A stretch of DNA of 64,000 nucleotides from Rhodobacter xanthinilyticus. Lineage in GTDB: Bacteria; Pseudomonadota; Alphaproteobacteria; Rhodobacterales; Rhodobacteraceae. The position numbers and the translations under genes were made by a program. The stretch lies in contig NZ_CP017781.1 in the NCBI RefSeq assembly GCF_001856665.1, positions 2,389,501 to 2,453,500 on the forward strand, in the 5' to 3' direction. Shown piece by piece: positions 36,259-51,170 of this stretch (position 1 is its first letter; each line of letters begins with the position of its first letter). Below the pieces are notes generated by a model. It ran no database searches and had not been told where the DNA came from. It was given only the letters and a program-made list of their open reading frames with translations.

Positions 36259-36960
36259 TCAGCCCTTCGCCCAGGCCGCGGCCGGATCCTCCTCGGCATA
36301 ATCGCGCAACACCGCGATCTCCTCGATCTCGGCGAGGTTCTGCTTCACCGTCACGCCATAGTCGCGCAGCTTGGCAAAGGCCCGGCTCAGGCTCTCGGGC
36401 TTCATCCCGAGCCGCCCCGCGATCAGAACCTTGTCATAGGGCAGCGTCACCTCGCACCGCCCCTCGCCGCAGGGCGCCAGCTCGAGCAGGAACTCCGCCA
36501 CCCGCTGCGCGCCGGTCTGCGCCTTGAGCTGTTCGATCTGCGCGACAAGCCGATGCAAATGCGCAAAAGTCGCCGCCAGAAGCGCCAGCGACAGCCCCGG
36601 CTCCTCGCGGATCAGCCGCAAGATCGCCTCGGTATCGACCCGCACCAGCCGGCAATCGGTCGCGCATTCGGCCGAGACCGGGTAGGTGTCATGGGTGAAG
36701 GCGACCGCCTCGCCGAAACTGTGGCCGCGGGTGAAGACCCCCACCACCGCCTCGGCGCCGCTCGGCGCGATCCGGTAGAGCTTCACCCAGCCCTCGACGA
36801 CGATATAGACCGAGCTCGCGCGCTCCCCTTGCAGGAAAATCGTCGCGCCGCGCTCCATCTCGCGCTCGCGCGCGGTGGCGAGGATCTTGTCCTGCGCCGC
36901 CCGCGGCACCGAGGCCAGAAGCAGCGATTTGCGGGTGATATTTTCGGAATCGAAGTTCAT
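36259..36960 (-). CDS. Crp/Fnr-family regulator, Dnr/Nnr-like
   Basis: The 233-residue protein has an N-terminal cyclic-nucleotide-type sensor barrel (about residues 15-130, with FLQGERASSVYIVVEGWVKLYRIAPSGAE), a dimer helix, and a C-terminal winged helix with GRLGMKPESLSRAFAKLRDYG (about residues 185-205). It lacks the N-terminal Cys cluster of oxygen-sensing FNR and resembles Dnr/Nnr nitric-oxide sensors, which use heme. Its promoter contains a TTGAG-N4-GTCAA site and it faces ubiE-menA; the same site type precedes nosZ. It is the probable activator of the nos region. ATG 36960 gives the family length. Confidence 0.85.
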   Translation of the reverse strand: MNFDSENITRKSLLLASVPRAAQDKILATAREREMERGATIFLQGERASSVYIVVEGWVKLYRIAPSGAEAVVGVFTRGHSFGEAVAFTHDTYPVSAECATDCRLVRVDTEAILRLIREEPGLSLALLAATFAHLHRLVAQIEQLKAQTGAQRVAEFLLELAPCGEGRCEVTLPYDKVLIAGRLGMKPESLSRAFAKLRDYGVTVKQNLAEIEEIAVLRDYAEEDPAAAWAKG

Positions 36961-37042
36961 GCGCGGCCCTTTGCTGCCGTTTTGTCGCATGTTTGACCCC
37001 AAGGTTAAAGCCGGAACCGCCCGCATGACGTCGCGAAGCGGG

Positions 37043-37056
37043 TTGAGAAAAGTCAA
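37043..37056. promoter_or_regulatory. FNR/Dnr-type box in the regulator/ubiE divergent promoter
   Basis: TTGAGAAAAGTCAA is TTGAG-N4-GTCAA, one mismatch from a perfect TTGAC-N4-GTCAA palindrome of the FNR/Dnr/Nnr type. It lies 83 bases before the regulator start (36960) and 67 bases before ubiE (37123), so it can serve both. Confidence 0.65.
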
Positions 37057-37122
37057 AGGCGCGGCGCGCAGGGCGCGCTAGACCGGGGGCGGAATTTGCC
37101 CGCTCAGGAGGGTCGTGAGGCC

Positions 37123-37929
37123 ATGCAACGTGCCAAGGCGCTTGAGGAAATGCGCACCAGTTTCGGCGCCGAGAAGACCACGCCCGAGGACCGCCGCGCG
37201 CGGGTCTCGGCGCTCTTCGACCGGATCGCGCCGCGCTATGATCTGATGAATGATCTGATGAGCTTCGGGCTGCATCGCTATTGGAAATCGGTGGCGGTGG
37301 CTTGGGCGGCGCGCGCGCTCGGGGGCCGCACGGGGCCCCATCTCGACCTCGCCGGCGGCACCGGCGATCTGGCGCTCGCGCTCGCCGCGCGCGCGCCCGG
37401 GCGCGAGATCCTGGTCGCCGACGCCTCCGAGGGGATGCTCGCCCAGGCGCGGCGGCGGGGCGGCGCGCGGCTTGGCTATCTGCACGCCCCCGCCGAGGAT
37501 CTGCCGCTCGAGACCGGCTCGGTCGCGGCGGTCACGCTCTCCTTCGGGCTGCGCAACATGACCGATCCGGGCGCCGGCCTGCGCGAGGTGGCGCGCGTGC
37601 TCGCGCCGGGTGGCGCGTTGATCTTGCTCGAGTTTTCGCGCCCGGCCGCGTGGTTCGCGCCGCTTTACGGGCTCCATGCGCGCTATGTGATCCCCGCGCT
37701 CGGCGCGCTGATCGCGGGCGACCGGGGCGCTTATCGCTACCTCGTCGAGTCGATCGCGCGCTTCCCCGCGCGCGAAGATATCGCCCGCGAACTCGCCGCT
37801 TCGGGGTTCCACCTCGAGGCCGAGCGTGCTTTCATGTTCGGCATCGCGCGGCTGCAATGCGCGCGCCGCCCCGAAACACCGCCCGCCCCCGCCGCCGCCC
37901 CCCTGCCCGCCAAGGAGACCGCCCGATGA
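37123..37929 (+). CDS. ubiE: UbiE/MenG-type quinone C-methyltransferase
   Basis: A 268-residue SAM-dependent methyltransferase that adds the ring methyl in ubiquinone and/or menaquinone synthesis. It shows the N-terminal RVSALFDRIAPRYDLMNDLMSFGLHRYWK (split here by family helices, about residues 26-54), the SAM motif DLAGGTGDLALAL (about residues 76-88), and SFGLRNMTDPGAGLREVARVL (about residues 139-159), all UbiE signatures. It overlaps menA by 4 bases (ATGA). In related bacteria the ubiquinone ubiE normally lies with ubiB near mutM, so this may be a second copy dedicated to the MenA product. Confidence 0.9.
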   Translation: MQRAKALEEMRTSFGAEKTTPEDRRARVSALFDRIAPRYDLMNDLMSFGLHRYWKSVAVAWAARALGGRTGPHLDLAGGTGDLALALAARAPGREILVADASEGMLAQARRRGGARLGYLHAPAEDLPLETGSVAAVTLSFGLRNMTDPGAGLREVARVLAPGGALILLEFSRPAAWFAPLYGLHARYVIPALGALIAGDRGAYRYLVESIARFPAREDIARELAASGFHLEAERAFMFGIARLQCARRPETPPAPAAAPLPAKETAR

Positions 37930-38843
37930 GTGCCCAGCCCGCCGCCCCCGCCGCCCAGGAGGCGCTGCGCGCCCGCCTCGGCGCCCTGCCGCGCCCGCTT
38001 CTGTGGGTGATCGCGGCGCGGCTGAAAACCGTCTCGCTGTCGCTCGCGCCGGTGCTCGCGGGCAGCTGGCTGGCCGCCCGCGCCGGGCTCTGGCGCCCCG
38101 ATGTCACCCTCGCCGCCGGCCTCTCCGCCGCCGCGATCCAGATCGGCACCAACCTGTGGAACGACGCCGCCGATGCCGCGCGCGGGGTTGACCGCGCCGA
38201 CCGGCTCGGGCCGCCGCGGCTCACCGCGCTCGGCCTGCTCGAGGGCGCGCAGGTGCGCCGCGCGGCGCTCGCGGCCTTTGGGCTGGCCACCCTCGCCGGG
38301 CTCTACCTCACCGCGCTCGGCGGCGCGCCGATCGTGGCGATCGGGCTGGCCTCGCTCCTGATGGGCTATCTCTATTCGATGGGGCCCTGGCCGATGTCGG
38401 GGCTGCCCTTCGGCGAGGCGCTGGTGATCCTGTTCTTCGGCCTCGTCGCGGTCTCGGGCACCGCCTGGCTGCAAGGCGTCGCGCCGCTCGCCCCCGAAAC
38501 GCTGCGCCTTGGCGCGATGATCGGGCTACCTGCGGCGGCGGTCTTGATCCTCAACAACCACCGCGACCGCGCCCAGGATGCCCGCGCCGGGCGGCGCACG
38601 CTTGCAATCGTGATCGGGCCCACGGCCTCGCGCGCGCTCTATTTCGGCTTTCTCGCAGGCGCCTTCGCGCTCGGGGCGGCGGCCGTGGGCCCGAGCCCCT
38701 GGCTCGCGCCGGCGGGCGGGCTCGCCCTCTGGCTCGGTCATGCGATGGCGCATTGGCCGATCTCGGCCGATCTCAACCGGCTCCTGGGCCAGACCGCGCT
38801 CTTCCAGCTCCTGCTGCTCCTGGGCGTCGCGCTCGGCGGGTGA
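37926..38843 (+). CDS. menA: MenA-family prenyltransferase (1,4-dihydroxy-2-naphthoate type)
   Basis: The 305-residue UbiA-superfamily integral membrane enzyme (about 8-9 helices) fits MenA better than UbiA. It carries the first Asp-rich site in IGTNLWNDAADAARGVD (about residues 76-92), followed by RLGPPRLTALG, typical of MenA; LVILFFGLVAVSGTAWLQG (about residues 160-178); and the second site LNNHRDRAQDARAGRRTLA (about residues 208-226). MenA joins a polyprenyl chain to dihydroxynaphthoate to give demethylmenaquinone, which UbiE then methylates. No other menaquinone gene is in the window. A terminator hairpin follows. Family is firm; the true aromatic substrate is inferred. Confidence 0.85.
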   Translation: MSAQPAAPAAQEALRARLGALPRPLLWVIAARLKTVSLSLAPVLAGSWLAARAGLWRPDVTLAAGLSAAAIQIGTNLWNDAADAARGVDRADRLGPPRLTALGLLEGAQVRRAALAAFGLATLAGLYLTALGGAPIVAIGLASLLMGYLYSMGPWPMSGLPFGEALVILFFGLVAVSGTAWLQGVAPLAPETLRLGAMIGLPAAAVLILNNHRDRAQDARAGRRTLAIVIGPTASRALYFGFLAGAFALGAAAVGPSPWLAPAGGLALWLGHAMAHWPISADLNRLLGQTALFQLLLLLGVALGG

Positions 38844-38849
38844 AAGAAA

Positions 38850-38875
38850 ACGGCCGCCGGTCTCCCGACGGCCGT
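38850..38875. terminator. Hairpin between convergent menA and pcuAC genes
   Basis: ACGGCCG (38850-38856) pairs with CGGCCGT (38869-38875), extended inside by CGG/CCG after one mismatch. AAAA before it and TAT after it suggest bidirectional action. Confidence 0.6.
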
Positions 38876-38895
38876 ATCTGCCCCCGCGCGGGCGC

Positions 38896-39351
38896 TCAGT
38901 TCATCGCGCCCGGGCCCTTGACCGGCAGGTTCACCTCGACCTTGCCCGCGTTCTGGAATTCGAGCGTCACCGGCACCAGATCGCCCATCGCGAGCTTCGC
39001 CGTCAGCCCGATGCACATCAGATGCAGACCACCGGGCTGCAACACCGCATTACCCCCCGCCGGCACCTCGATCGAGGGCACCTGACGCATCTTCATGATC
39101 CCGTCCTCGTTGAGATGGGTATGCAGCTCGGGCCGCTCGCAGGCGGGCGTCGAGAAGGCGAGAAGCACATCCGCCGGGCCGGTCGAATGGATCGTCACGA
39201 ACCCCGCCCCGTTGCCCCCGGCCATCGGCGCCGCGCGGAAGAACCCGCCCGAGATCTCGAGCCCGGGCGCGCTGGCCTCCTGCGCCTGAGTCGCCGCAGC
39301 GCCAAGGACAACCATCGCCGCCGCCGCAGAAATAAGAGAACGTTGTTTCAT
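38896..39351 (-). CDS. Periplasmic copper chaperone PCuAC
   Basis: The 151-residue protein has a Sec signal peptide (about residues 1-24) and a cupredoxin-like PCuAC domain. The Cu(I) motif H-x10-M-x21-H-x-M is exact: His77, Met88, His110, Met112. PCuAC delivers copper to CuA centres, usually with SCO. It is divergent from nosZ across a 201-base region holding a Dnr-type box, and a SCO gene lies at the far end of the nos cluster, so it probably supplies copper to the CuA site of NosZ. It may also serve cytochrome oxidase. Confidence 0.92.
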   Translation of the reverse strand: MKQRSLISAAAAMVVLGAAATQAQEASAPGLEISGGFFRAAPMAGGNGAGFVTIHSTGPADVLLAFSTPACERPELHTHLNEDGIMKMRQVPSIEVPAGGNAVLQPGGLHLMCIGLTAKLAMGDLVPVTLEFQNAGKVEVNLPVKGPGAMN

Positions 39352-39430
39352 GCCAAACCCTTCTGATGGAACGAAAACCCTCTTCCCGGAAGGTTCCGTC
39401 GCAAGTTGCCGCCAAAGGGACATCCAAGCC

Positions 39431-39444
39431 TTAACAAATGTCAA
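39431..39444. promoter_or_regulatory. FNR/Dnr-type box in the pcuAC/nosZ divergent promoter
   Basis: TTAACAAATGTCAA is TTAAC-N4-GTCAA, one mismatch from the TTGAC-N4-GTCAA palindrome. It is 108 bases before the nosZ start and 79 bases before the PCuAC start. A Dnr/FNR site at this location is expected for a NO- or low-oxygen-activated nos operon. Confidence 0.65.
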
Positions 39445-39552
39445 GGCGTCCGCCTCACGCCCGTGTGAAGAGGGGCACGGCGCAGCTCACGAGCCGTCTG
39501 CGTCATCGGGAAACGCATTCATGCAAGAACGGCTCGAAAGTGAGGGCAAACA

Positions 39553-41838
39553 ATGGTCAAGACCATTCACAAACGCCTGCTTGCCACGACGGGAATCGTG
39601 GCGATGTCGATGGCGATGGGCGCTTCTGCGGAAACGCTCGATGAGGTGATGGCGCGCCGCGGGCTGACCCAGCAAGATCTGGTCGCCGCCGCCAAAACCT
39701 ATACCCCGACCGGCGGGCGCGATGAATTCATCGCCTTCTCGTCGGGCGGCCAGTCGGGCCAGATCATGGTCTATGGCATCCCCTCGATGCGGATCCTGAA
39801 ATATATCTCGGTCTTCACCCCCGAGCCCTGGCAGGGCTTCGGCTTCGACGAGGAATCGAAGAAGATCCTCGAAGAGGGCAAGGTCGATGGCCGCACCCTG
39901 CAATGGGGCGACACCCACCACCCGGCGATCACCGAGACCAACGGCGATCTCGACGGCGAATATCTGTTCATCAACGACAAATCCGCGCCGCGCGTCGGCG
40001 TGATCTCGCTGCATGACTTCGAAACCCAGCAGATCGTGGTGAACCCGATCCTGCAATCCGAACACGGCGGCACCTTCGTGACCCCGAACTCGGAATATGT
40101 GATCGAAGCCGCGCAATATCCGGGCGTTCTGGGCCGCGGCTATGCGCCGCTGAGCCAGTTCAACGAGAAGTTCCGCGGCGCGGTCACCTATTGGAAATTC
40201 GACCGCGAGGCCGGCCGGATCGATCCGTCGAAGTCCTTCTCGATCGAGCTGCCGCCCTATAGCCAGGACTTGTCGGACGCCGGCAAACTGGTCTCGGACG
40301 GCTGGTCCTTCACCAACTCCTTCTGCGCCGAACGCTATGTCGGCGGCATCGAATCGGGCCGTCCGCCGTTTGAAGCGGGCTGCTCGCAAAACGACACCGA
40401 CTATCTGCATGTGATCAACTGGAAGAAGGCCGAAGAGGTCTACAAGGCCGGCAAGGTCACCATGATCAATGACCATCCGGTGATCTCGATGCAGACCGCG
40501 ATCGACGAAGGCCTCGTCTATCTGATCGCCGAGCCGAAATCGCCCCACGGCGTCGATGTCTCGCCCGACGGCAAATATATCGTCGTGGGCGGCAAGCTCG
40601 ACACCCAGGCCTCGGTCTATTCCTTCGAGAAGATCATGAAGGCGGTCGAGGACAAGAATTTCGTCGGCACCGACCCCTACGGGATCCCGGTGATCGCGAT
40701 GCAAGATGCGCTGCACAAACAGGTCGCGCTCGGCCTCGGGCCGCTGCACAACCAGTTCGACAGCAAACCCTGCGTGGTCTACACCTCGCTCTATGTCGAC
40801 AGCCAGATCGCGAAATGGGACTATTGCGAAGGCAAGGTCCTCGACAAGCTCTCGATCCACTATAACGTCGGCCACCTCGTCGCGATGGAGGGCGAAAGCG
40901 TCCACCCGGCTGGCAAGTATCTGGTTTCGCTCAACAAGCTCGCCATCGACCGGTTCAACCCGGTGGGCCCGCTGCACCCGCAAAACCACCAGCTGATCGA
41001 CATTTCCGGCGACAAGATGGAGCTTCTCTACGACATGCCGGTGCCGCTGGGCGAGCCCCACTACGTCACCGCGATCTCGGCCGAGAAACTCAAGCCGCTC
41101 GTGCGCTACAAATACGGCACGAACTCGCGCACCGGCGAGAAACACGAAGGGGCGGTGCGTCCGGGCCAGGAACGCATCGAGCGTGACGGCACCAACGTCA
41201 AGGTCTACATGACCGCGATCCGCTCGCACTTCACCCCGGAAATCGTCGAGGTGAACGAGGGCGATACCGTCGAGTTCATCATCACCAACTCCGAACGGGC
41301 CGAAGACGAAACCCACGGCTTCTCGGTCTCGACCTACAACGTCAACCTCTCGCTCGAACCGGGCAAGACCGCGACCGCGAAGATCGTTGCCGACAAACCC
41401 GGCGTGTTCTCCTACTACTGCACCGAGTTCTGCTCGGCGCTGCACCTCGAGATGACCGGGTTCCTCGCCGTCAAGCCGAAGGGCTATGTCGAAGAGGCGG
41501 GCGCGGTGTCGGAAGGCCAGGCCTACACCAAGGACGACTACGACAAGCAAACCGCGAACAACGTCGCGACCCAGGAAGTCATCGACTCGGTGGTGGCCTA
41601 TATCACCGAACGCAACTTCAAGGACTTCCCGGAAGTCGTCTCGCTCGTCGAAGACGCCACCGACCAGCTGAACTTCGCCGCCGATGCCAAGGCCAAGGCC
41701 GAGGAAGCCGCGGCCAAGGAAGACTGGCAGGGCGCGACCCTCTGGGCCGGCCAGTGGTGGCAATATCAGGTCAAGGCGGCCGATATCGGCCTGCGTGCCA
41801 AGACCTTCCTCGATGAACATGGCGCTGTGAAACAATAA
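39553..41838 (+). CDS. nosZ: Nitrous-oxide reductase, clade II (Sec-exported)
   Basis: The 761-residue periplasmic multicopper enzyme reduces N2O to N2. Its leader (about residues 1-26) has no twin-arginine motif, so it is Sec-exported like clade II enzymes, unlike typical alphaproteobacterial clade I NosZ. CuZ ligands of the seven-bladed propeller begin with DTHHPAITE (about residues 118-126), with further His in SEHGG, NDHPV and PHGVDVSPDGKY. The CuA cupredoxin domain has CTEFCSALHLEM (Cys623, Cys627, His631, Met634). A helical tail of about 110 residues without any CxxCH follows. It is first in the nos operon, downstream of a Dnr box. Confidence 0.96.
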   Translation: MVKTIHKRLLATTGIVAMSMAMGASAETLDEVMARRGLTQQDLVAAAKTYTPTGGRDEFIAFSSGGQSGQIMVYGIPSMRILKYISVFTPEPWQGFGFDEESKKILEEGKVDGRTLQWGDTHHPAITETNGDLDGEYLFINDKSAPRVGVISLHDFETQQIVVNPILQSEHGGTFVTPNSEYVIEAAQYPGVLGRGYAPLSQFNEKFRGAVTYWKFDREAGRIDPSKSFSIELPPYSQDLSDAGKLVSDGWSFTNSFCAERYVGGIESGRPPFEAGCSQNDTDYLHVINWKKAEEVYKAGKVTMINDHPVISMQTAIDEGLVYLIAEPKSPHGVDVSPDGKYIVVGGKLDTQASVYSFEKIMKAVEDKNFVGTDPYGIPVIAMQDALHKQVALGLGPLHNQFDSKPCVVYTSLYVDSQIAKWDYCEGKVLDKLSIHYNVGHLVAMEGESVHPAGKYLVSLNKLAIDRFNPVGPLHPQNHQLIDISGDKMELLYDMPVPLGEPHYVTAISAEKLKPLVRYKYGTNSRTGEKHEGAVRPGQERIERDGTNVKVYMTAIRSHFTPEIVEVNEGDTVEFIITNSERAEDETHGFSVSTYNVNLSLEPGKTATAKIVADKPGVFSYYCTEFCSALHLEMTGFLAVKPKGYVEEAGAVSEGQAYTKDDYDKQTANNVATQEVIDSVVAYITERNFKDFPEVVSLVEDATDQLNFAADAKAKAEEAAAKEDWQGATLWAGQWWQYQVKAADIGLRAKTFLDEHGAVKQ

Positions 41839-41846
41839 CGCCAAAG

Positions 41847-41871
41847 GGCGCGGCGGGTTCTCCGCCGCGCC
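41847..41871 (+). terminator. Strong intra-operon hairpin after nosZ
   Basis: GGCGCGGCGG (41847-41856), loop GTTCT, CCGCCGCGCC (41862-41871): a perfect 10-bp stem 8 bases after the nosZ stop. No T run follows, so it more likely slows decay of nosZ mRNA or lets only part of the transcripts continue to the cytochrome genes. Confidence 0.6.
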
Positions 41872-41907
41872 TCTCCCCTGTCAGCTTCCGCTCCGAGGAT
41901 AGTGCCG

Positions 41908-42558: not shown

Positions 42559-42574
42559 CGAAAGGATATCCCAG

Positions 42575-43291
42575 ATGAAAACCCGCATTTCCCTGATCTC
42601 GGCCGCCGCGCTGCTCGCGCTCGCGCTGCCCGCCCTGGCCGAGGGCACCGTCGACACCTCCTCCTGGAACCAGGGCGGCGGCGAACAGGATGAGGCGCTC
42701 CACCTCACCCCCAACCATGAAAACGGCATCGAGGTCTATGAGGTCTGCTCGGCCTGCCACCAGCTCAACGGCTGGGGCCTCGAGGACGGCACCTTCCCGC
42801 AGATCGCCGGCCAGCACAAGGACGTGATCATCAAGCAGCTCGCCGATATCCGCGCGCTCAACCGCGACAACCCGACGATGTATCCCTTCGCGCTCCCCTC
42901 CGAGATCGGCGGCGCGCAATCGATCGCCGATGTGGCGGAATATATCTCGAAACTGCCGATGAACCCCAACAACGGCAAGGGCCCGGGCACCAATCTCGCG
43001 CTCGGCGAACAGCTCTACAAGGATAACTGCGTGCGCTGCCACGGCGCCGAGGGCGAGGGCGATGACGCGAAATTCTACCCCCGCATCCAGGGCCAGCATT
43101 TCAACTACCTGATGCGCCAGTATGAATGGATCAAGACCGGCAAGCGGCGCAACGCCAACCCCGACATGGTCCAGCAGATCCAGGGCTTCACCGACGCCGA
43201 TACCGAGGCCGTGCTCGATTACGTCTCGCGGCTCAAACCGCCGGCGGAGCTGGTGGCCGCGCCCGATTGGGTCAACCCCGATTTCGAATGA
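42575..43291 (+). CDS. Periplasmic diheme cytochrome c (second nos-operon cytochrome)
   Basis: The 238-residue protein has a Sec signal (about residues 1-21) and two heme sites, CSACHQ (about residues 58-63) and CVRCHG (about residues 151-156). It is preceded by an unusual 30-residue N-terminal stretch rich in Ser, Trp, Gly and Gln. It starts 16 bases after the first cytochrome gene with GAAAGGA as its site. Together they give four hemes between quinol dehydrogenase and NosZ. A 13-bp hairpin follows the stop. Confidence 0.9.
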   Translation: MKTRISLISAAALLALALPALAEGTVDTSSWNQGGGEQDEALHLTPNHENGIEVYEVCSACHQLNGWGLEDGTFPQIAGQHKDVIIKQLADIRALNRDNPTMYPFALPSEIGGAQSIADVAEYISKLPMNPNNGKGPGTNLALGEQLYKDNCVRCHGAEGEGDDAKFYPRIQGQHFNYLMRQYEWIKTGKRRNANPDMVQQIQGFTDADTEAVLDYVSRLKPPAELVAAPDWVNPDFE

Positions 43292-43297
43292 CCGCGC

Positions 43298-43327: not shown

Positions 43328-43361
43328 CGCCTGACCGACATAGCCTGACAGGATCTCACCC

Positions 43362-44546
43362 ATGGACAAGGCCCCCCTCGACAAACGCGGCCTCCTCTAC
43401 CGCGTGCTCACGCTCCTCTCCGTCTGCCTGATCGCCGCGTCCTTCTTCAGCCCCGGCTGGTGGGTGTCGCTGACCGCGCCGAACTACCCCGAAGCGACCT
43501 TCCCGCAGGGGATCCGCATCCTCTTCCACATGGATTCGGTGCGCAACGGCTGCGATATCCGCGCCAGCCAGGAAGTCGAGGAGAACGAGGCCCTCGATTG
43601 CGTCCATGAGATGGACACCATCAACCATTACGTCGGCATGTATCCGATCGCCTCGGGCGGGCCGGTGGAAAAAGCCTTCTCGCCCTTCCTCTTCGCGATG
43701 CTCGGCGTGATGGCGCTGGCCTTCGCCGCCCCCGGCCGCGCGGCGCGCATCGGCGTCTCGGTCGCGGGCTATGGCGCGATCGCGGTCTGGATGAGCCTCG
43801 CGCTTTATGGCGAAAACGGCGTCGGGCTGACCACCTCGGGCTATCTCAAGGGCCTCGTCGTCTCGCTCGGCCAAGATAGCGGCGACAAGGTCGAGGCCGA
43901 TCAGAACCTCTCGCCGATCGTCAAGATGCTCAAGCAATCGCTCGCCGAAAGCGCCGACAAGGAGCAAAAGACCACCGCCGTCGCCGGCGACCGCGCCAGC
44001 CTGATCGCCAACCTCAAGGCCAATTACGAGATCGACGAACAGAAGAAACCGATGCATGAACAAGTGGCCTGGAATGGCTCGATCATGCAGGTGTTCCAGT
44101 GGCATTACGCCAAATCGCTCGCACGCTGGTTCAACGAACCCGCCCGCAACGACCCGCTCGTCGCGACGATGAGCTCGGTGGCGCAGATCCTTTACGTCGT
44201 GGTGCTGGCCTTCATGGCGCTGATGATCTTCGCGGCGTTTTCGGCGCGCTCCGTGTTCTACTGGCTCTTGGTTCTGGTGCCGATGGCGCTGCCGGTGGGG
44301 TTCATCGCCGAATATGCCGGCTGGCTGTGGTGGTATGGGCATTCGCTCAACGAAATGGGCGCCTTCACGCTCAAACCCTTCATGCCCACCGTCTTTGGCG
44401 ACGGCAAGGTGGCGCAGTTCACCACCCATTCCTACCCCGCGCAGGGCTTCTTCCTGATGCTCGGCTCCTCGGCGCTCCTCGTGCTAGCCGCGCTGATCCG
44501 GCTCAAACAGCTGCGGCTGGCGGGCGACCGCGCCGCGCGGATGTGA
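43362..44546 (+). CDS. nosB: NosB-like polytopic membrane protein
   Basis: A 394-residue inner-membrane protein with about six to seven helices: residues 14-36, 105-125, 130-150, then four between about 265 and 390. A periplasmic loop of about 65 residues sits after the first helix, with two Cys in NGCDIRASQEVEENEALDC, and a second large charged loop spans about residues 165-260. NosB is the membrane protein found only in clade II nos clusters, next to nosZ; its role is unknown. It stands here between the cytochromes and nosD. I recognise it by size, topology and place rather than by a catalytic motif. Confidence 0.82.
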   Translation: MDKAPLDKRGLLYRVLTLLSVCLIAASFFSPGWWVSLTAPNYPEATFPQGIRILFHMDSVRNGCDIRASQEVEENEALDCVHEMDTINHYVGMYPIASGGPVEKAFSPFLFAMLGVMALAFAAPGRAARIGVSVAGYGAIAVWMSLALYGENGVGLTTSGYLKGLVVSLGQDSGDKVEADQNLSPIVKMLKQSLAESADKEQKTTAVAGDRASLIANLKANYEIDEQKKPMHEQVAWNGSIMQVFQWHYAKSLARWFNEPARNDPLVATMSSVAQILYVVVLAFMALMIFAAFSARSVFYWLLVLVPMALPVGFIAEYAGWLWWYGHSLNEMGAFTLKPFMPTVFGDGKVAQFTTHSYPAQGFFLMLGSSALLVLAALIRLKQLRLAGDRAARM

Positions 44547-44560
44547 CCTCGGAGGCTTCG

Positions 44561-45844
44561 ATGCGTATTGCCTTGCTCATCGCCTGTCTTGCCCTCGCCG
44601 CCCCCGCGGCGCTGGCCGAGACCTTGCAAGAGCGCATCGACGCCGCCCCCGATGGCGCCGAGATCACCCTGACCCCGGGCGAGGTCTACATGGGCCCGGT
44701 CGTCGTGCGCCACCCGGTGGTGATCGACGGCCAGGGCTCGGCGGTGATCGACGGCGGCGGCAAGGGCACGGTGCTGACGCTCGAAACCGATGGCGCGACG
44801 GTGAAGAACGTGACCCTGCGCAACTCCGGCCGGCTCCATAACGAGGTCAACGCCGGCCTGCGCATCAAGGGCGCGTTCAACGTGGTGCGCGACACCCGTA
44901 TCGAGAACTCCCTCTTCGGCATCGACCTGACCCAGGCCAACAACAACGTCCTGCGCCGCAACTATATCTCGTCGAAACACGTCCCCCTCGAGATCCGCGG
45001 CGATTCCGTGCGGATCTGGTATTCCAACGACAACCTCTTCGAGCAGAACCACGTCGAGAACGCCCGCGATTTCGTGGTCTGGTACAGCTCCGGCAACATC
45101 ATCCGCGATAACCGCATCCAGCACGGCCGCTATGGCATCCACTTCATGTATGCCCATGAAAACCTTGTCGAAAACAACGAGATCTCGGATTGCGTGGTGG
45201 GCATCTTCCTGATGTATGCCAATGACATCACCGTGCGCGGCAACCAGATCCTGCGGTCCTGGGGCGCGGCGGGCATGGGGGTGGGCTTCAAGGAGACCTC
45301 CGGCGCCGTCGTCGAGGACAACAAGATCCTCGGCAATGCGGTCGGCATCTATCTCGACCCCTCGCCCTGGGATCCCGACAGCCCCAACGCCTTCCACCGC
45401 AACCAGATCGCCTATAACGGCATCGGCGTGCAGTTCCATACCGAATGGACCGGCAACGATTTCCGCGACAACAACTTCATCTCGAATTTCACCCAAATCT
45501 CGGTGCGCGGCCGCGGCACGGCGCTGAAAGAGGGCTGGAACGGCAATTACTGGGAAGATTACGCGGGCTTCGACCGCGATGGCGATGGCATCGGCGACGC
45601 GCCCTACGAGATCTACAATTACGCCGATGTGCTCTGGATGGACCTGCCGCCCGCGGCCTTCTTCCGCGGCGGGCTGGCGCTTGCGGCGCTCGATTTCGTC
45701 GAACGTCTGGCGCCCTTCACCGAGCCGCAACTTCTGGTGCGCGAGGCCCGCCCGATGGCCCGGCCCCTCGACCATGCCGCCGCGCGCGCCGAAACCGCGC
45801 CGCGCGAGAACCCGAAATCTGCCTTGGAGATGTTGACGCAATGA
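44561..45844 (+). CDS. nosD: Periplasmic copper-site maturation protein NosD
   Basis: The 427-residue protein has a Sec signal (about residues 1-19) and a right-handed beta-helix built of CASH/NosD repeats. Typical Asn-rich turns are ANNNVLRRNYIS, NDNLFEQNHVEN, GNIIRDNRIQHGRYGIHFMYAHENLVENNEISD and GIFLMYANDITVRGN. It works with NosF and NosY to build the CuZ sulfide cluster of NosZ. Its stop overlaps nosG by 4 bases. The start, 15 bases after nosB, has CGGAGG 6 bases upstream. Confidence 0.95.
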   Translation: MRIALLIACLALAAPAALAETLQERIDAAPDGAEITLTPGEVYMGPVVVRHPVVIDGQGSAVIDGGGKGTVLTLETDGATVKNVTLRNSGRLHNEVNAGLRIKGAFNVVRDTRIENSLFGIDLTQANNNVLRRNYISSKHVPLEIRGDSVRIWYSNDNLFEQNHVENARDFVVWYSSGNIIRDNRIQHGRYGIHFMYAHENLVENNEISDCVVGIFLMYANDITVRGNQILRSWGAAGMGVGFKETSGAVVEDNKILGNAVGIYLDPSPWDPDSPNAFHRNQIAYNGIGVQFHTEWTGNDFRDNNFISNFTQISVRGRGTALKEGWNGNYWEDYAGFDRDGDGIGDAPYEIYNYADVLWMDLPPAAFFRGGLALAALDFVERLAPFTEPQLLVREARPMARPLDHAAARAETAPRENPKSALEMLTQ

Positions 45845-46656
45845 GCGACCCCTCCGCCCCTGAAACGGCCCCTGCCGCCCCTGCGGCCAAACCGCAAAAA
45901 CGCCTCACCCGCCGCGAGTTGGAGCGCCGCCGGCTGCTCCTGCGCTCGCTCGGCGCGACGGTGGCCGCGCTCGGCGCAGGCCTCGTCGGCTGGTATCCGA
46001 CCGGGCGCGACCTCTTCGACCGGCTGCGCCCGCCCGGCGCGCTCGATGAGCGCGACTTCCTCGCCGCCTGCATCAAATGCGGCCAATGCGTCCAGGTTTG
46101 CCCGGTCGAGGCGATCAAGCTCGGCGATGGCGAAGAGGGCTACGGCCTCGGCGTGCCCTATATCGATGCGCGCGCGCAGGCGTGCGATTTCTCCTGCGAC
46201 GCGGTGCAATGCGTGCTCGCCTGCCCGACCGGCGCGCTCTCGCATCTGATCGCGACGAAGGAGGAGGTGACGATGGGCGTGGCGCGTCTGGCGCGCCCCG
46301 AAAGCTGCCTGGCGATGCGCGGCGAGGGCTTCCGCGGCCTCGCGCGCGGCTATGATTTCACCGGCAAGCTGCGCTATGAAGAGATCGACCGCTGGGATCC
46401 GCTGCCCGTGGCCGAACACCCCTATGATCTTGAAATCTGTGACCTTTGTGTCCGCGAATGCCCGATCGAGGGCGCCATCGCGCTCGCGCCCCTTTCCGCC
46501 GACCCGGCCGACAAGCGCCGCATGCCGGTCGTCGCGAAAAGCTGCGTCGGCTGCGGCACCTGCGAGATGATCTGCCCCGCCGAACCCGCCGCGATCATCA
46601 TCGACACCGAGATGGGCCTCGCCCTCGAGGCGCAGAAGAAGGAGGCCCTGGCATGA
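45841..46656 (+). CDS. nosG: NosG: periplasmic/membrane-facing ferredoxin-type subunit (NapG-like)
   Basis: The 271-residue protein has a twin-arginine-like anchor (RRRLLLRSLGA, about residues 29-39). Four [4Fe-4S] sites follow: CIKCGQCVQVCP, CDFSCDAVQCVLACP, CDLCVRECP and CVGCGTCEMICP (between about residues 79 and 250). In clade II nos systems NosG and NosH are thought to oxidise quinol (menaquinol in Wolinella) and pass electrons to periplasmic cytochromes. It overlaps nosD and nosH by 4 bases each, so the three are co-translated. Confidence 0.93.
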   Translation: MSDPSAPETAPAAPAAKPQKRLTRRELERRRLLLRSLGATVAALGAGLVGWYPTGRDLFDRLRPPGALDERDFLAACIKCGQCVQVCPVEAIKLGDGEEGYGLGVPYIDARAQACDFSCDAVQCVLACPTGALSHLIATKEEVTMGVARLARPESCLAMRGEGFRGLARGYDFTGKLRYEEIDRWDPLPVAEHPYDLEICDLCVRECPIEGAIALAPLSADPADKRRMPVVAKSCVGCGTCEMICPAEPAAIIIDTEMGLALEAQKKEALA

Positions 46657-47630
46657 GCTGGTTCCTGCACAAACTCGCGATGATGTTCGGCGCCGAGCCG
46701 CGCAAGCCCACCGCCGCCGAGGAGACCGAGGCCGCGCGCGAGATGAAGCGCTTCAAGAAGACCCCGGCCGAGGTGATCAAACGCAAGGAAATCATCGCCG
46801 AGGAAGCCAATCTGATCTCCGGCCGCCACAAATGGCGCAACCTGCGCTGGGCCTCGATCCTCGGCATCAACGCGCTTTTCATCCTGTCCTTCCAGTTCGA
46901 TGTGCAGCTCGTCGAGGGCGCGCTGACCGCCTCGCGGTTTCTGGGCTTCCACATGGCCGACCCGAACGCCGCGCTGCAGGTGATGCTCGCCTTCAAGGAG
47001 GTGATGCTCAACCTCGTGATCGGCACGGTGACGGTGGTGTTCCTGTGGTGGCTGGTCGGCGGGCGGGCGTTTTGCTCCTGGGCCTGCCCCTATCACCTCT
47101 TGGCCGAATGGGCCGAGGCGATCCACCTCTTCCTCGCCCGGCGCGGCTGGGTCAAGGATCACCCGTTCCACCGCGGCATGCGCCTCGTGCTCTGGGTGGC
47201 GTTCATGGCGCTGGCCTTCCTGACCGGCTACACCGTCTTTGAATATATCAACCCCGTCGGCATCGTCTCGCGCGCGCTGATCTATGGGCCCACCTTCGCG
47301 GTGATCTGGGTGATTTTCCTCCTCGGCGTCGAGATCTTCTTCTCGCGGCGCTTCTGGTGCCGCTATGTCTGCCCGATCGGGCTGACCTATGGCATCACCG
47401 GCGCCATCGCGCCCGTGCAGATCAAATACGACCTCTCGAAATGCGTCCATGAGGGCGAATGCCGCGCGGTCTGCCTCGTGCCGCATGTTCTCGAGATCAC
47501 CAAGATGGGCTATGCTCAGGACACCACCGAATTCATCGGCCCCGATTGCACGCGCTGCGGTCTGTGCGTCGATGCCTGCCCGCAAGAAGCGCTGAGCTTC
47601 ACCCTGCGCGGGCTCGACAAGATCCTCTGA
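46653..47630 (+). CDS. nosH: NosH: membrane quinol dehydrogenase-type iron-sulfur protein (NapH-like)
   Basis: A 325-residue polytopic protein with four to five membrane helices (from about residue 68 to 245) and the two CxxxCP motifs of the NapH family, FCSWACP (about residues 140-146) and WCRYVCP (about residues 232-238). C-terminal ferredoxin sites are a loosely spaced CVHEGECRAVC and a standard CTRCGLCVDACP (about residues 292-303). It anchors NosG and should be the quinol entry point of the N2O electron path. The start is in a 4-base overlap with nosG. Confidence 0.93.
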   Translation: MSWFLHKLAMMFGAEPRKPTAAEETEAAREMKRFKKTPAEVIKRKEIIAEEANLISGRHKWRNLRWASILGINALFILSFQFDVQLVEGALTASRFLGFHMADPNAALQVMLAFKEVMLNLVIGTVTVVFLWWLVGGRAFCSWACPYHLLAEWAEAIHLFLARRGWVKDHPFHRGMRLVLWVAFMALAFLTGYTVFEYINPVGIVSRALIYGPTFAVIWVIFLLGVEIFFSRRFWCRYVCPIGLTYGITGAIAPVQIKYDLSKCVHEGECRAVCLVPHVLEITKMGYAQDTTEFIGPDCTRCGLCVDACPQEALSFTLRGLDKIL

Positions 47631-47639
47631 GGGCAAGCC

Positions 47640-48503
47640 ATGATCTCCATCGACCGCCTCTCCAAACGTTTCGACCGCCGCGCGGTGCTCGACGAGCTCA
47701 CCCTCTCGATCGAGCGCGGCGACCGCATCGCGCTGATCGGCCAGAACGGCGCCGGCAAGACCACGCTCTTTCGCTGCCTGCTCGGCCATTACGGCCATCA
47801 GGGCACGATCGCCTTCGATGGCGTCGCGGGCCGGCGGCGCGAGACCGCGGCGCTCTCGCGGGTGGCCTTCGTGCCGCAACTGCCGCCGCCCCTGCGGATG
47901 CCGGTGGGCGAGCTTCTCAGCTTCGCCGAAAAGGGCGCGGGCGCCGATCCGCGCGCGATGCGCGAGATCGCCGGGCGGCTCGGGATCGACCTCGACGAGG
48001 TCCGCGCGCGGCCGTTCTTCCGGCTCTCGGGCGGGCAGAAACAGAAGATCCTCGTCACCGTGGCGCTCGGCCGCGCGGCCGATCTGATGATCTTCGACGA
48101 GCCCGCCGCCAACCTCGATCCGGCCGCGCGGGCGGTGTTCATCGACCTGCTGGCCGAGCGGCGCGAGGCCTCGATGCTGATCGCGAGCCACCGGCTCGAA
48201 GAGGTGGCGGGCCTCGTCAACCGGGTGATCGAGCTCGACCGCGGGCGCGTGGTGCTCGATGAGGCGGTGCTCGACCGGCTGCGCGCGGGCGCGACGCATC
48301 GCGCCGTGATCACCCTCGACGCGCCCCACGAGCCGCTCGCGCGCGCGCTCACCGGCTGGGGCTTTGCCGCCGCGCCCTCGGGGCTGCGCTTTGCCGGCCC
48401 GGTGCCCGCCGCCGAGACCTTCCGCTTCCTCGGGCTCGTCGCCCGCTATGGCAGCCTGATCGAGAGCCTCAGCCTCGAGCAGGACACCCCGGAGGAGATC
48501 TGA
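47640..48503 (+). CDS. nosF: NosF ABC-transporter ATPase
   Basis: The 287-residue cytoplasmic ATPase has Walker A GQNGAGKTT (about residues 36-44), signature LSGGQKQK (about residues 127-134), Walker B LMIFDEPAANLD (about residues 147-158) and the switch His in IASHRLEE. It energises the NosDFY machine that matures the CuZ centre. It lies 9 bases after nosH with GAGGG as its site, and 1 base before nosL. Confidence 0.95.
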   Translation: MISIDRLSKRFDRRAVLDELTLSIERGDRIALIGQNGAGKTTLFRCLLGHYGHQGTIAFDGVAGRRRETAALSRVAFVPQLPPPLRMPVGELLSFAEKGAGADPRAMREIAGRLGIDLDEVRARPFFRLSGGQKQKILVTVALGRAADLMIFDEPAANLDPAARAVFIDLLAERREASMLIASHRLEEVAGLVNRVIELDRGRVVLDEAVLDRLRAGATHRAVITLDAPHEPLARALTGWGFAAAPSGLRFAGPVPAAETFRFLGLVARYGSLIESLSLEQDTPEEI

Positions 48504-48504
48504 C

Positions 48505-49017
48505 ATGTGCCACCACTGCCCCCCCCTCTCCCGCGCCCGCGGCCCGAGCCGCCGCGCGATGCTTGCGCTGCTCGTCGGCGCGCCGCTTCTGGCCGCCTGC
48601 AAGCCGCAAACCGAGGGCCCCGAGCCGATCCGCTGGGGCCGCGAGACCTGCGAGATCTGCGGGATGATCATCTCCGAGCCGCAATATGCCGCCGAGATCC
48701 GGGGCGGCCCGGACGCCAAGCTGGTCAAATTCGACGATATCGGCGATGCGGTCCACTGGCTCGAGGGCAAGGAGTGGAAGGACGACCCCGGGATCGAATT
48801 CTGGGTGATGGATTACGACAGCGGCTTTGCCGGCGATCAATGGCTCGATGCGCGAAAGGCCCACTTCCGCTCGGGCGTCGTCAGCCCGATGGATTACGGC
48901 TTTGCGGCGGTGAAATTGCCCGCCTCCGATACCGTCGATTTCGCCGCGATGCACAAGGCGGTCTTGGCGCGCGGCTTGACCTCGCGGTGCCACCCGGACG
49001 AGATAGGGAAAGGCTGA
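48505..49017 (+). CDS. nosL: NosL copper-binding lipoprotein
   Basis: The 170-residue protein has an N-terminal CHHC cluster (residues 2-5), a membrane segment and lipobox LLAAC (Cys32). The NosL domain follows, with CEICGM (Cys49, Cys52, Met54), ISEPQYAAEIRG, and KFDDIGDAVHW. NosL binds Cu(I) and delivers it to NosD for CuZ assembly at the membrane. The CHHC before the membrane segment is unusual and could itself bind a metal in the cytoplasm. It is 4 bases upstream of nosY. Confidence 0.94.
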   Translation: MCHHCPPLSRARGPSRRAMLALLVGAPLLAACKPQTEGPEPIRWGRETCEICGMIISEPQYAAEIRGGPDAKLVKFDDIGDAVHWLEGKEWKDDPGIEFWVMDYDSGFAGDQWLDARKAHFRSGVVSPMDYGFAAVKLPASDTVDFAAMHKAVLARGLTSRCHPDEIGKG

Positions 49018-49021
49018 CAGG

Positions 49022-49951
49022 ATGAACGCGATGACCTCTGCCCAGATCGACACCGCCGCCGAAGCGGCCGCGGCCACGCCCGCGCGCGCCGCGGTGCACC
49101 CCGCCCGCCCCGAGGCGCCGCCGCGCACCGGGCTCGGGCTCGCGATGCGGCTCGAGCTCTCCGAGAGCCTGCGCTCGCGCTGGTTCCATTTCTATTCCGT
49201 CGTGGTGATCGGGCTGATGGCGCTTTTGATCACCACCGGCATCTCCGAGAGCCGGGTGCTCGGCTTCACCGGCCTGTCGCGGCTTCTGGTGACCTATATC
49301 CAGCTCGCCATGGCGATCTTGCCGCTCTTCATCGTGGTCACCACCGCGCGCTCGATGGTGGGCGATCGCGAGGCGGGCAATCTCGAATACATGCTCGCCT
49401 TCCCGGTCTCGCTGCGGGTCTGGTATTGGGGGCGGTTTCTGGCGCGGCTGGTGCTGACGCTCGCGCCCGTCGCGCTCGCGCTCGGCCTTGCGGCGGGCTA
49501 TGGGCTCGCGCGTGGCCATGAGGTGCCCTGGGCGCCGATCGCGCTCTATTCGGGGCTGATCGCGGCGCTGGCGAGCTGTTTTCTCGGCATCGGCTTCTTG
49601 ATCTCGGCGCTCTCGCGCTCGACCGAGGTGGCGCTCGGCGCCTCGCTGCTGGTCTGGCTCACGCTCGTCGCGCTGCTCGATCTGCTGCTCCTGTCGATCC
49701 TGATCCAGAACCAGATCGTGCCCGAGGTGGTGATCGGCATTGCGCTTGCGAACCCGTTGCAGGCCTTCCGCACCGCCTCGATGATCCTCTTCGACCCGCA
49801 GCTGATCCTGCTCGGCCCGGCGTCTTATGTGATCCTCGACCATTTCGGCGTGGGCGGCTATGTCGCCTGGGCGCTGGCCTATCCGGCCGGGCTCGGCCTC
49901 GTCTTCGCGGCGCTCGGCTATTGGCGCTTCTCGCGCTCGGATCTGGTCTGA
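49022..49951 (+). CDS. nosY: NosY ABC-transporter permease
   Basis: The 309-residue membrane protein has about six helices after a 45-residue cytoplasmic Ala-rich N-terminus. Helices begin at about residues 58, 92, 135, 160, 200 and 270. The motif TARSMVGDREAGNLEYMLAFPVS (split around the coupling helix, about residues 112-134) is typical of ABC-2 permeases of the NosY kind. It pairs with NosF. It is the last gene of the operon, with a strong hairpin 12 bases after the stop. Confidence 0.93.
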   Translation: MNAMTSAQIDTAAEAAAATPARAAVHPARPEAPPRTGLGLAMRLELSESLRSRWFHFYSVVVIGLMALLITTGISESRVLGFTGLSRLLVTYIQLAMAILPLFIVVTTARSMVGDREAGNLEYMLAFPVSLRVWYWGRFLARLVLTLAPVALALGLAAGYGLARGHEVPWAPIALYSGLIAALASCFLGIGFLISALSRSTEVALGASLLVWLTLVALLDLLLLSILIQNQIVPEVVIGIALANPLQAFRTASMILFDPQLILLGPASYVILDHFGVGGYVAWALAYPAGLGLVFAALGYWRFSRSDLV

Positions 49952-49962
49952 GACAAGAAGAA

Positions 49963-49980
49963 GGGGGCCCGTGGGCCCCC
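49963..49980 (+). terminator. Terminator-like hairpin at the end of the nos operon
   Basis: GGGGGCCC (49963-49970) and GGGCCCCC (49973-49980) with A-rich sequence before it. It lies between convergent nosY and the TlpA-like gene. Confidence 0.65.
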
Positions 49981-50007
49981 TCAAGTCCGTGGCGCGCCGC
50001 CCAGGGA

Positions 50008-50559
50008 TCAGCCGCGCGCCAATGCCGCGAGCCAGTCGAAACTCGCCGCGTCATCCCATCGCGCCTCGCCCGCAACCAGCGCCACCGCCGCGCCCCCGGC
50101 ATCGACCACGACCGAGCTCGGCAGGTTCTCGAGGCCAAAGACCGCGGCAAGGTTCTCCCCCTCGCCAAGCAGCACCGGCAGCCCCTCGATCCCTTCCTCG
50201 GCATAAAACCGCCGCACCCCGGCCGCGCCGCGCCAGTCGAAGCTGATCGGCAAGATCTCGAGCGCGAGCCCCTCGGCCGCCACCCGCCCCGCGAGCCGGG
50301 CGATCTCGGGCATCTCGCGCCGGCACGGCAGACACCAGGGCGCCCAGAGCGTGACGAGCAGAACCCGCCCGCGGTGCTCGGAGAGCGTGCCCGGCACCCC
50401 GTCACCGGTCTTGTAGGTGAGCTCGCCCGCCGGGCGCGGCGGCGCGAACGGCCGGGCCAGGGCCGCCGCCGAAGGCGCCGCCCCCGCCGCCCGCGCGCCC
50501 CCGAAGGCCGCGCAGGCAAACCCCGCCGCCAGCACCCCGCGCCGCGTCAGCGCGCTCAT
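50008..50559 (-). CDS. TlpA-like periplasmic thioredoxin
   Basis: The 183-residue exported protein has a Tat- or Sec-type leader TRRGVLAAGFACAAFG and a thioredoxin fold with active site WCLPC (Cys76, Cys79) and the cis-Pro in ENLPSSVVVD (about residue 145). TlpA proteins keep CuA-site or SCO cysteines reduced so they can take copper. It overlaps the upstream SCO gene by 4 bases, which points to joint action on SCO or the NosZ CuA centre. Confidence 0.9.
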   Translation of the reverse strand: MSALTRRGVLAAGFACAAFGGARAAGAAPSAAALARPFAPPRPAGELTYKTGDGVPGTLSEHRGRVLLVTLWAPWCLPCRREMPEIARLAGRVAAEGLALEILPISFDWRGAAGVRRFYAEEGIEGLPVLLGEGENLAAVFGLENLPSSVVVDAGGAAVALVAGEARWDDAASFDWLAALARG

Positions 50560-51170
50560 TGCTCGGGCACCGCCGCGATCTGGACCTTCAGATCCGCGGC
50601 CATCTCGGCGCCCGTCGTGCCATGCGGATAGCGCTTGATCAGCTGCCCGTCGGGCCCCACCAGCGCCACCGAGGCCGTATGGTCGATCGAATAGCGCTCG
50701 GGCTGCGCCGGATCGGGCACGATCCGCTCATAGCGCGCATTGAAGGCCGCGACCATGTGGTCGGTATAGGCCTTCGGGCCGCGCAGCGGGATGATCCGGC
50801 TATCGAAAACGGCGGTATACTCTTGCAGGAGCTTGGCCGTGTCATGATCGGGGTCGACGGTGACAAAAAGCGGCGCGACGCGCGCGGCCTGCGCCTCATC
50901 GAGCCCCGCCAGCGCATCGGCGATCACCGAAAGCGTCGTCGGGCAGACATCGGGGCAGCCGGTATAGCCGAAGTAGATCAAGACGAACTTGCCCAGAAAA
51001 TCCTCATCCGTCAAAGCGTTACCCCAGGCATCCTCCATCAGGTAACGCCGCGGCACAGGCGCCTCCGTGGCCGCCTCGGGGCCGGGTTCGAGATCGGCAT
51101 GTTGGGCAAAGAGCGGCCCGGCCACGACAAGCGCAGCCCCGGCGGCGAGAAAAAAGCGACGGTCGAGCAT
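50556..51170 (-). CDS. SCO1/SenC-family copper chaperone
   Basis: The 204-residue exported protein has a Tat-type leader DRRFFLAAG, the copper site CPDVC (Cys72, Cys76) in GYTGCPDVCPTTL, and the conserved His in YSIDHTASV (about residue 173). SCO proteins load the CuA site of oxidases and, in some denitrifiers, of NosZ. A FNR-like box lies 55 bases upstream. With the TlpA-like gene it forms a two-gene operon convergent with nosY; with PCuAC at the other end it brackets the nos operon. Confidence 0.93.
   Translation of the reverse strand: MLDRRFFLAAGAALVVAGPLFAQHADLEPGPEAATEAPVPRRYLMEDAWGNALTDEDFLGKFVLIYFGYTGCPDVCPTTLSVIADALAGLDEAQAARVAPLFVTVDPDHDTAKLLQEYTAVFDSRIIPLRGPKAYTDHMVAAFNARYERIVPDPAQPERYSIDHTASVALVGPDGQLIKRYPHGTTGAEMAADLKVQIAAVPEQ

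What the first reader, a model, noticed from the sequence alone, without database searches (positions are those of the whole stretch)
36259..51170. Clade II nitrous-oxide respiration region with its own quinone-modifying genes
A Sec-type nosZ, nosB and nosGH identify the atypical clade II system, in which quinol (menaquinol in Wolinella) feeds NosGH. Directly beside it, sharing a Dnr-type box with the regulator, is a coupled ubiE-menA pair. MenA makes demethylmenaquinone, and alphaproteobacteria such as Rhodobacteraceae are generally thought to use only ubiquinone. This suggests that N2O respiration here has, or had, its own low-potential quinone supply or a novel quinone. PCuAC and SCO/TlpA bracket the cluster for copper delivery.
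Basis: partly seen in the sequence, partly recalled or inferred. Interest (0 to 1): 0.85.

Follow-up and report, generated by a model that had tools for sequence, protein, structure and literature searches.

The report
N2O-respiration cluster with quinone-salvage genes
A bacterium of a group thought to use only ubiquinone carries, inside its genes for breathing laughing gas, two late vitamin K-making genes plus a matching transporter, suggesting that it may consume this greenhouse gas with a quinone built from a precursor scavenged from its neighbours.

Summary
The cluster is real: Sec-type (clade II) nosZ, two cytochromes c, nosB position, nosDGHFLY, a coupled ubiE-menA pair, PCuAC, TlpA, SCO and a Dnr-like regulator. 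MenA groups with MenA, not UbiA; its nearest solved structure is UBIAD1. The genome has no MenD above cut-off, no MqnA/MqnD, and a separate UbiA and UbiE, so the pair is extra and lacks a known precursor pathway. Among 295 family genomes, clade II nosZ occurs in 5 and menA in 7 (those 5 plus 2); the 7 best BASS scores are exactly those 7 genomes. In a tree, 26 BASS of 25 menA genomes form one group with none of 23 from menA-less genomes. The group is missing from both menD-positive genomes tested, but also from 4 of 29 menD-negative ones. All three divergent promoters, including sco|BASS, carry an FNR/Dnr-type box. Best reading: BASS imports a naphthoate (probably DHNA), MenA prenylates it, UbiE2 methylates it, and the menaquinol feeds NosGH. 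Transport substrate and quinone are inferred, not shown.

The parts
36259..37056 (-). Crp/Fnr (Dnr/FtrB-like) regulator, longest frame; likely start at 36960
   Evidence: Pfam cNMP_binding and HTH_Crp_2; start judged from sequence
37043..37056 (.). FNR/Dnr-type box TTGAGAAAAGTCAA, one mismatch, between regulator and ubiE
   Evidence: ubiE upstream box in 9 of 24 loci against 5.3% background
37123..37929 (+). second UbiE/MenG-type methyltransferase
   Evidence: TIGR01934 214 bits, over cut-off; genome has a separate UbiE at 282 bits
37926..38843 (+). MenA-type (DHNA) polyprenyltransferase, motif II NNHRDR
   Evidence: TIGR00751 122 bits, cut-off 102; tree; nearest solved structure UBIAD1
38896..39444 (-). 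PCuAC copper chaperone, longest frame; likely start about 39351
   Evidence: Pfam PF04314
39431..39444 (.). FNR/Dnr-type box TTAACAAATGTCAA, one mismatch, in the PCuAC|nosZ promoter
   Evidence: box upstream of nosZ in 18 of 19 loci
39553..41838 (+). nosZ, Sec-type clade II nitrous oxide reductase
   Evidence: TIGR04246 865 bits
41902..42558 (+). two-domain cytochrome c
   Evidence: Pfam Cytochrom_C
42575..43291 (+). cytochrome c
   Evidence: Pfam Cytochrom_C
43362..44546 (+). protein in nosB position
   Evidence: no Pfam or NCBIfam match; conserved in place in relatives
44561..45844 (+). nosD
   Evidence: TIGR04247 386 bits, over cut-off
45841..46656 (+). nosG, NapG-type ferredoxin
   Evidence: mauM_napG 132 bits, below cut-off 179
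46653..47630 (+). nosH, NapH-type membrane ferredoxin, predicted quinol dehydrogenase subunit
   Evidence: TIGR02163 240 bits, over cut-off
47640..48503 (+). nosF ABC ATPase
   Evidence: Pfam ABC_tran
48505..49017 (+). nosL
   Evidence: Pfam NosL 23.9 bits, cut-off 24
49022..49951 (+). nosY ABC-2 permease
   Evidence: Pfam ABC2_membrane_2
50008..50559 (-). TlpA-type thioredoxin
50556..51170 (-). SCO1/SenC copper chaperone
   Evidence: Pfam PF02630
51225..51238 (.). FNR/Dnr-type box TTGACTTTGATCAG, one mismatch, in the sco|BASS promoter
   Evidence: BASS upstream box in 5 of 12 loci
51288..52154 (+). BASS (SBF) Na+ symporter family transporter; proposed importer of the quinone head-group precursor
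   Evidence: Pfam SBF; linked to menA in 7 of 7 family loci; co-occurrence; ASBT_NM profile match E 6e-40

Best explanation
The cluster is a clade II N2O-respiration island that carries its own menaquinone-salvage module. The BASS transporter imports a soluble naphthoate released by other microbes, most likely 1,4-dihydroxy-2-naphthoate (DHNA), using the Na+ gradient. MenA joins it to the cell's polyprenyl chain to give demethylmenaquinone, and the second UbiE methylates this to menaquinone. The low-potential menaquinol is oxidised by NosGH, which passes electrons through the two cytochromes c to NosZ. A Dnr-type regulator switches on ubiE-menA, nosZ and BASS together under denitrifying conditions, while housekeeping UbiA and UbiE keep making ubiquinone. 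Shown: gene content, family assignments, missing MenD and MqnA/D, co-occurrence, linkage and shared boxes. Inferred: direction and substrate of transport, MenA substrate, the quinone made, its use by NosGH, and the working of the regulator.
For: MenA-type by family model over cut-off, tree, only PDB sequence hit UBIAD1 and best PDB fold UBIAD1. No MqnA/D and no MenD over cut-off (the best hit is an acetolactate synthase). Own UbiA and a second UbiE elsewhere. Clade II nosZ against menA in the same 295 genomes: 5 of 5 with, 2 of 290 without (Fisher 1e-9, relatedness not corrected). BASS: the 7 best scores (542-183 bits) are exactly the 7 menA genomes, next 125 bits. BASS tree: 26 rows from 25 menA genomes group together (96/90) with 0 of 23 menA-less rows inside. 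BASS of this group in 25 of 29 menD-negative and 0 of 2 menD-positive menA genomes. Residues aligned to the ASBT_NM Na+ sites are invariant in the 10 rows of A2 (site identity recalled). FNR/Dnr boxes in all three divergent promoters and before 4 of 5 nos-linked BASS genes of the family. Precedent: L. plantarum contains MK-6/7 after growth with DHNA (PMC10746273, passages), and importers of DHNA-like precursors were predicted but unknown (PMC4746308, passages).
Against: No quinone or transport was measured. Four menD-negative menA genomes lack a BASS of this group (G301, G302, G304, G316). MenA here has NNHRD in motif II where E. coli and the two menD-positive relatives have NNLRD, so the head group may not be DHNA. 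Two family genomes have menA-BASS without clade II nos (one of them near narGH), so the module is not strictly for N2O. BASS proteins also carry other acids (ASBT_NM is solved with pantoate). In L. plantarum a mutant of the DHNA prenyltransferase still used exogenous quinone for electron export (PMC10746273, passages), so salvage need not run through MenA. Ubiquinol use by NosGH cannot be excluded.
Confidence: 0.5

Rival explanations
1. The imported acid is not DHNA: MenA and UbiE build another naphtho- or benzoquinone from a different aromatic acid.
For: NNHRD in 27 of 30 aligned MenA rows against NNLRD in E. coli and the two menD-positive rows; the window MenA passes one of the MenA cut-offs and misses the stricter ones.
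Against: MenA-type, not UbiA-type, by model, tree and fold.
Confidence: 0.2
2. BASS carries something unrelated, such as pantoate or another acid, and DHNA enters by diffusion or another carrier.
For: The two NCBIfam models matched are generic BASS and PanS, both below cut-off; some menA genomes lack this BASS.
Against: In the family the close BASS occurs only with menA, and it sits beside menA where clade II nos is absent (L017, L018).
Confidence: 0.17
3. DHNA is made in the cell by an unrecognised pathway, and menA-ubiE complete it.
For: A second menaquinone pathway has been found before (the futalosine pathway; PMC4053972 and PMC4746308 passages name it). MenB, MenC, MenE and MenF were not searched here.
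Against: No MenD over cut-off or MqnA/D; no candidate genes in the cluster; the BASS link is left unexplained.
Confidence: 0.07
4. The pair is a hitch-hiker or relic with no role in N2O respiration, which runs on ubiquinol.
For: UbiA and a second UbiE are present; no physiology known.
Against: Intact frames, conserved motifs across many genera, shared boxes, repeated co-occurrence.
Confidence: 0.06

Closest known systems
Clade II (Sec-type) nos cluster, as in Wolinella (recalled)
   Same: Sec nosZ, nosB position, nosDGHFLY and cytochromes c
   Different: Sits in an alphaproteobacterium with added menA, second ubiE and BASS; Wolinella makes its own menaquinone (recalled)
menA/menG-only DHNA salvage in lactobacilli and other quinone auxotrophs (PMC10746273, PMC4746308; passages)
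   Same: Late genes present, early genes missing
   Different: In those passages no importer is known, and the L. plantarum use is extracellular electron transfer; here the genes sit in an N2O cluster with a linked transporter
menA near denitrification genes in Ca. Accumulibacter (PMC6446978, figure legend and passages)
   Same: menA listed among genes drawn around nir/nor/nos
   Different: menA occurs once, in that legend, and the word menaquinone does not occur in the text
ASBT_NM and other bacterial BASS symporters
   Same: Fold and aligned Na+-site residues
   Different: 22-28% identity to the bacterial ASBT structures; substrate unknown; own tree group

Membership tests
Clade II nitrous oxide reductase | Sec-type NosZ over the curated cut-off | tested here: met
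   865 bits against 625
Clade II nitrous oxide reductase | nosB, nosG and nosH in the cluster | tested here: met
   nosH over a curated cut-off, nosG NapG-type below cut-off; nosB by position and conservation only, no library model matched
MenA | Member of the MenA branch of the UbiA superfamily | tested here: met
   TIGR00751 over cut-off, other MenA models below theirs; 33 MenA-type rows apart from UbiA 100/100
MenA | Prenylates DHNA | not testable with these tools
   needs an assay; motif II His differs from E. coli
Complete menaquinone pathway | MenD, or MqnA/D, in the genome | tested here: not met
   MqnA/D (control genomes over cut-off: 4 of 14); MenD (control genomes over cut-off: 7 of 14)
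DHNA-salvage organism | menA and menG/ubiE present, MenD and MqnA/D absent | tested here: met
   MenB, MenC, MenE and MenF not searched
DHNA-salvage organism | Forms MK from supplied DHNA | not testable with these tools
   growth experiment needed
BASS Na+ symporter | SBF fold and conserved Na+-site residues | tested here: met
   Pfam SBF; profile to ASBT_NM; model pLDDT 89; subfamily model TIGR00841 below cut-off, 120 against 326
BASS Na+ symporter | Na+-coupled uptake of an organic acid | not testable with these tools
   transport assay needed

The most novel reading that the evidence does not exclude
The BASS group linked to menA is a dedicated importer of a quinone head-group, of a kind not yet assigned in the papers we could search. 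In these alphaproteobacteria N2O respiration is a community-fed trait, running on a second quinone built from an acid scavenged from neighbours; given the conserved His in motif II, that acid and the resulting quinone may even be new.
Probability: 0.4. Interest if true: 0.9.

Novelty: new variant of a known kind. Interest (0 to 1): 0.78.

Why it matters
N2O reducers are the biological sink for a strong greenhouse gas (recalled). If alphaproteobacterial members with clade II enzymes need a vitamin K precursor from other microbes, N2O removal would depend on community composition and could be raised or lost by one small nutrient. It would also give a gene candidate for the kind of importer that was predicted in 2016 (PMC4746308) and left unassigned there; our own paper searches showed none in the rows listed. 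It makes the question of which quinone NosGH uses directly testable with one supplement and a few deletions.

Tried and rejected
MenD-like hits in the own genome (56.8, 34.2 and 28.8 bits, cut-off 244): the best is an acetolactate synthase large subunit; the other two were not identified further. MenA as a mis-named UbiA: rejected, the genome has its own UbiA and the tree separates them. Class-level co-occurrence (385 genomes): only the own genome has clade II nosZ over cut-off, so the class sample cannot test the link; MenA over cut-off is also in G360 (nosZ 470 bits, below the clade II cut-off) and G486 (no nosZ match at 1e-100), so menA also occurs without clade II nosZ; BASS was not searched in those two. 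Promoter boxes before menA itself: 0 of 36 loci, as expected where it follows ubiE. Within the MenA-type rows the deep forks are open, so the order of MenA types is unresolved. PF02621 has one sub-cut-off match, in G301 (24.4 bits, cut-off 26). Paper searches for nosZ with menA, ubiE, DHNA or menaquinone (listed/found: 20/215, 2/2, 15/20, 1/1, 15/56, 4/4) and for DHNA uptake or transporters (20/775, 20/64, 10/46, 5/5) showed no report of this link in the rows listed; PMC12942990, which holds nosZ, menA and ubiE, was seen in the listing only. PMC12453579 was looked into by passages and does not bear on it. Subscription papers and most preprints are outside that library.
Full report
What is there. 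The window lies at G000:C1:2389501-2453500 of a 3.78 Mb genome, 99.99% complete. The stretch 36259-51170 holds a clade II nitrous oxide reductase cluster. NosZ matches the Sec-dependent model at 865 bits (cut-off 625), followed by two cytochromes c, a protein in the nosB position, nosD, nosG, nosH, nosF, nosL and nosY. PCuAC lies before nosZ; TlpA-type and SCO1 proteins close the far end. NosB is named by position only, since no library model matched it; nosG and nosL are below their cut-offs. On the left a Crp/Fnr regulator is read away from ubiE (37123-37929) and menA (37926-38843), which overlap by four bases.

Identity of MenA and UbiE. MenA passes the curated MenA model TIGR00751 (122 bits, cut-off 102) and falls below the stricter MenA models (best 201 against 264). 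In a tree of 35 rows the 33 MenA-type rows, with E. coli MenA among them, stand apart from E. coli and own UbiA (100/100); the deep forks inside are open. A profile of seven family members finds a single PDB relative at E 1e-3, UBIAD1 (E 3e-18), and the predicted structure (mean pLDDT 91) also fits UBIAD1 best. UBIAD1 is the animal menaquinone-4 synthase (recalled). The cluster UbiE passes the MenG/UbiE model (214 bits). The genome holds a separate UbiE (282 bits) and UbiA (284 bits), so the cluster copies are extra.

No known precursor pathway. PF02621 (MqnA/MqnD) has no match in the own genome. The best MenD match is 57 bits against a cut-off of 244 and is an acetolactate synthase. MenD passes the cut-off in 2 of 31 menA-bearing genomes (G317 Myxococcota and G318 Rhodocyclaceae), and PF02621 passes in 0 of 31, with one sub-cut-off match in G301. 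So 29 of the 31 could finish a menaquinone but, by these markers, not start one; several are draft or metagenome genomes of unstated completeness. MenB, MenC, MenE and MenF were not searched.

The missed gene. Directly after SCO, read away from it, lies 51288-52154, a bile-acid:Na+ symporter family (BASS) protein (Pfam SBF; ASBT_NM profile match E 6e-40; model pLDDT 89, best fits are bacterial ASBT structures). Positions that align with the recalled Na+-site residues of ASBT_NM are invariant in ten rows. All seven menA loci found in the family carry it: in five it closes the nos cluster, and in the two without linked clade II nos it sits right beside menA; one of these lies near narG and narH.

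Co-occurrence. The same 295 family genomes were searched three times. Clade II nosZ over cut-off: 5. MenA: 7, made up of those 5 plus G193 and G241. BASS: 91 genomes have some match at E 1e-15, but the seven best, 542 to 183 bits, are exactly the seven menA genomes, and the next is 125 bits. Fisher values are 1e-9 for nosZ-menA and 3e-14 for menA-BASS; they ignore relatedness and block transfer. A tree of 53 BASS rows puts 26 rows from 25 menA genomes together (96/90), with none of the 23 best rows from menA-less genomes inside. Outside it fall the BASS of G304 and G316 and second copies in G297 and G300. G301 and G302 have no match at 1e-20, and neither do the two menD-positive genomes. So this BASS group is in 25 of 29 menD-negative and 0 of 2 menD-positive menA genomes. 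That is the pattern expected of an importer needed only without synthesis, but with just two positives (Fisher 0.013 for any match at 1e-20). Judged by equal contig lengths and positions, menA and BASS share a contig, within about 20 kb, in 20 of 31 genomes; in the other 11 they are on different contigs, far apart, or BASS is missing.

Regulation. Up to two mismatches, TTGAYNNNNRTCAA occurs 60 times in the window against 28.9 expected from shuffles, so single weak matches mean little. One-mismatch sites number six, and three of them lie in the three divergent promoters: 37043 (regulator|ubiE-menA), 39431 (PCuAC|nosZ) and 51225 (sco|BASS). The first two overlap the first codons of the longest regulator and PCuAC frames, for which I take later starts. 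Across loci a box with at most one mismatch lies before nosZ in 18 of 19, ubiE in 9 of 24, BASS in 5 of 12 and menA in 0 of 36, against 5.3% of random 280-base stretches; some loci are copies of the same genome. Of the five nos-linked BASS genes of the family, four have a box: those of the window, L020, L022 and L023, not L021.

Spread. A capped scan of species genomes returned 31 menA relatives, among them Rhodobacteraceae, Hyphomicrobiales, Geminicoccaceae, Cohaesibacter, Lautropia, Rhodocyclaceae and Myxococcota; 17 of 31 loci also hold nosZ, though the scan was seeded with menA. In the class as a whole MenA passes its cut-off in 3 of 385 genomes, own included, which fits the view that alphaproteobacteria rarely use menaquinone.

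An odd residue. Motif II reads NNHRD in 27 of the 30 rows of A3 (window and 26 relatives, all from menD-negative genomes where tested) and in G360, but NNLRD in E. coli MenA and both menD-positive relatives, NNTRD in Lautropia and NNYRD in G486. UBIAD1 has NNTRD in the alignment. This may mark a different head group or a tuned site; it is the main reason to keep a new quinone open.

How it most likely works. Steps shown: gene content, missing MenD and MqnA/D, extra UbiE, BASS-menA pairing, common boxes. Steps inferred: BASS imports DHNA, MenA and UbiE2 turn it into menaquinone, and menaquinol drives NosGH to NosZ. Quinone exchange has precedent: L. plantarum contains MK-6 and MK-7 after growth with DHNA and its uptake route is unidentified, though a mutant of its DHNA prenyltransferase still used exogenous quinone (PMC10746273, passages); menaquinone or a soluble precursor was proposed to pass between partners in Chlorochromatium (PMC4053972, passages); and Ravcheev and Thiele predicted that menA/menG-only genomes should have unannotated importers (PMC4746308, passages). 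MK-7 was reported in Mesorhizobium bacteroids, another alphaproteobacterium (PMC3237581, passages). One paper lists menA among genes drawn around denitrification genes of Accumulibacter (PMC6446978, figure legend and passages).

Verdict. It is a new variant of a known kind (DHNA salvage) in an unexpected place, with an importer candidate.

Noticed in passing
window 52247-55599: A cydDC-like ABC exporter pair lies directly downstream of BASS (CydD model 405 bits, cut-off 435; CydC model 315 bits, cut-off 329).
   Followed up: partly
window 60227-60874 and 62516-63370: A serine recombinase-like and a ParB-like reading frame near the window end, judged by eye, suggest a mobile element; no NCBIfam match at 1e-20.
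   Followed up: partly
own genome, G000:C1: Three UbiA-fold proteins were found: UbiA, this MenA and one closest to a HAD-UbiA model; no heme O synthase (CtaB) among them, which would suggest no heme A oxidase.
   Followed up: no
   Followed up: partly
L032:9397-9897: A lone menA in a Rhodobacterales MAG sits next to an Rrf2-family regulator (over the superfamily cut-off; RirA- and NsrR-like below theirs).
   Followed up: partly
L040:5144-7023: A NapG/NapH-type pair (NapG model over cut-off; second gene by similarity to nosH) lies about 2 kb before ubiE-menA-nosZ.
   Followed up: no
L039/G305: G305 holds two BASS copies of the menA-linked group on different contigs.
   Followed up: no
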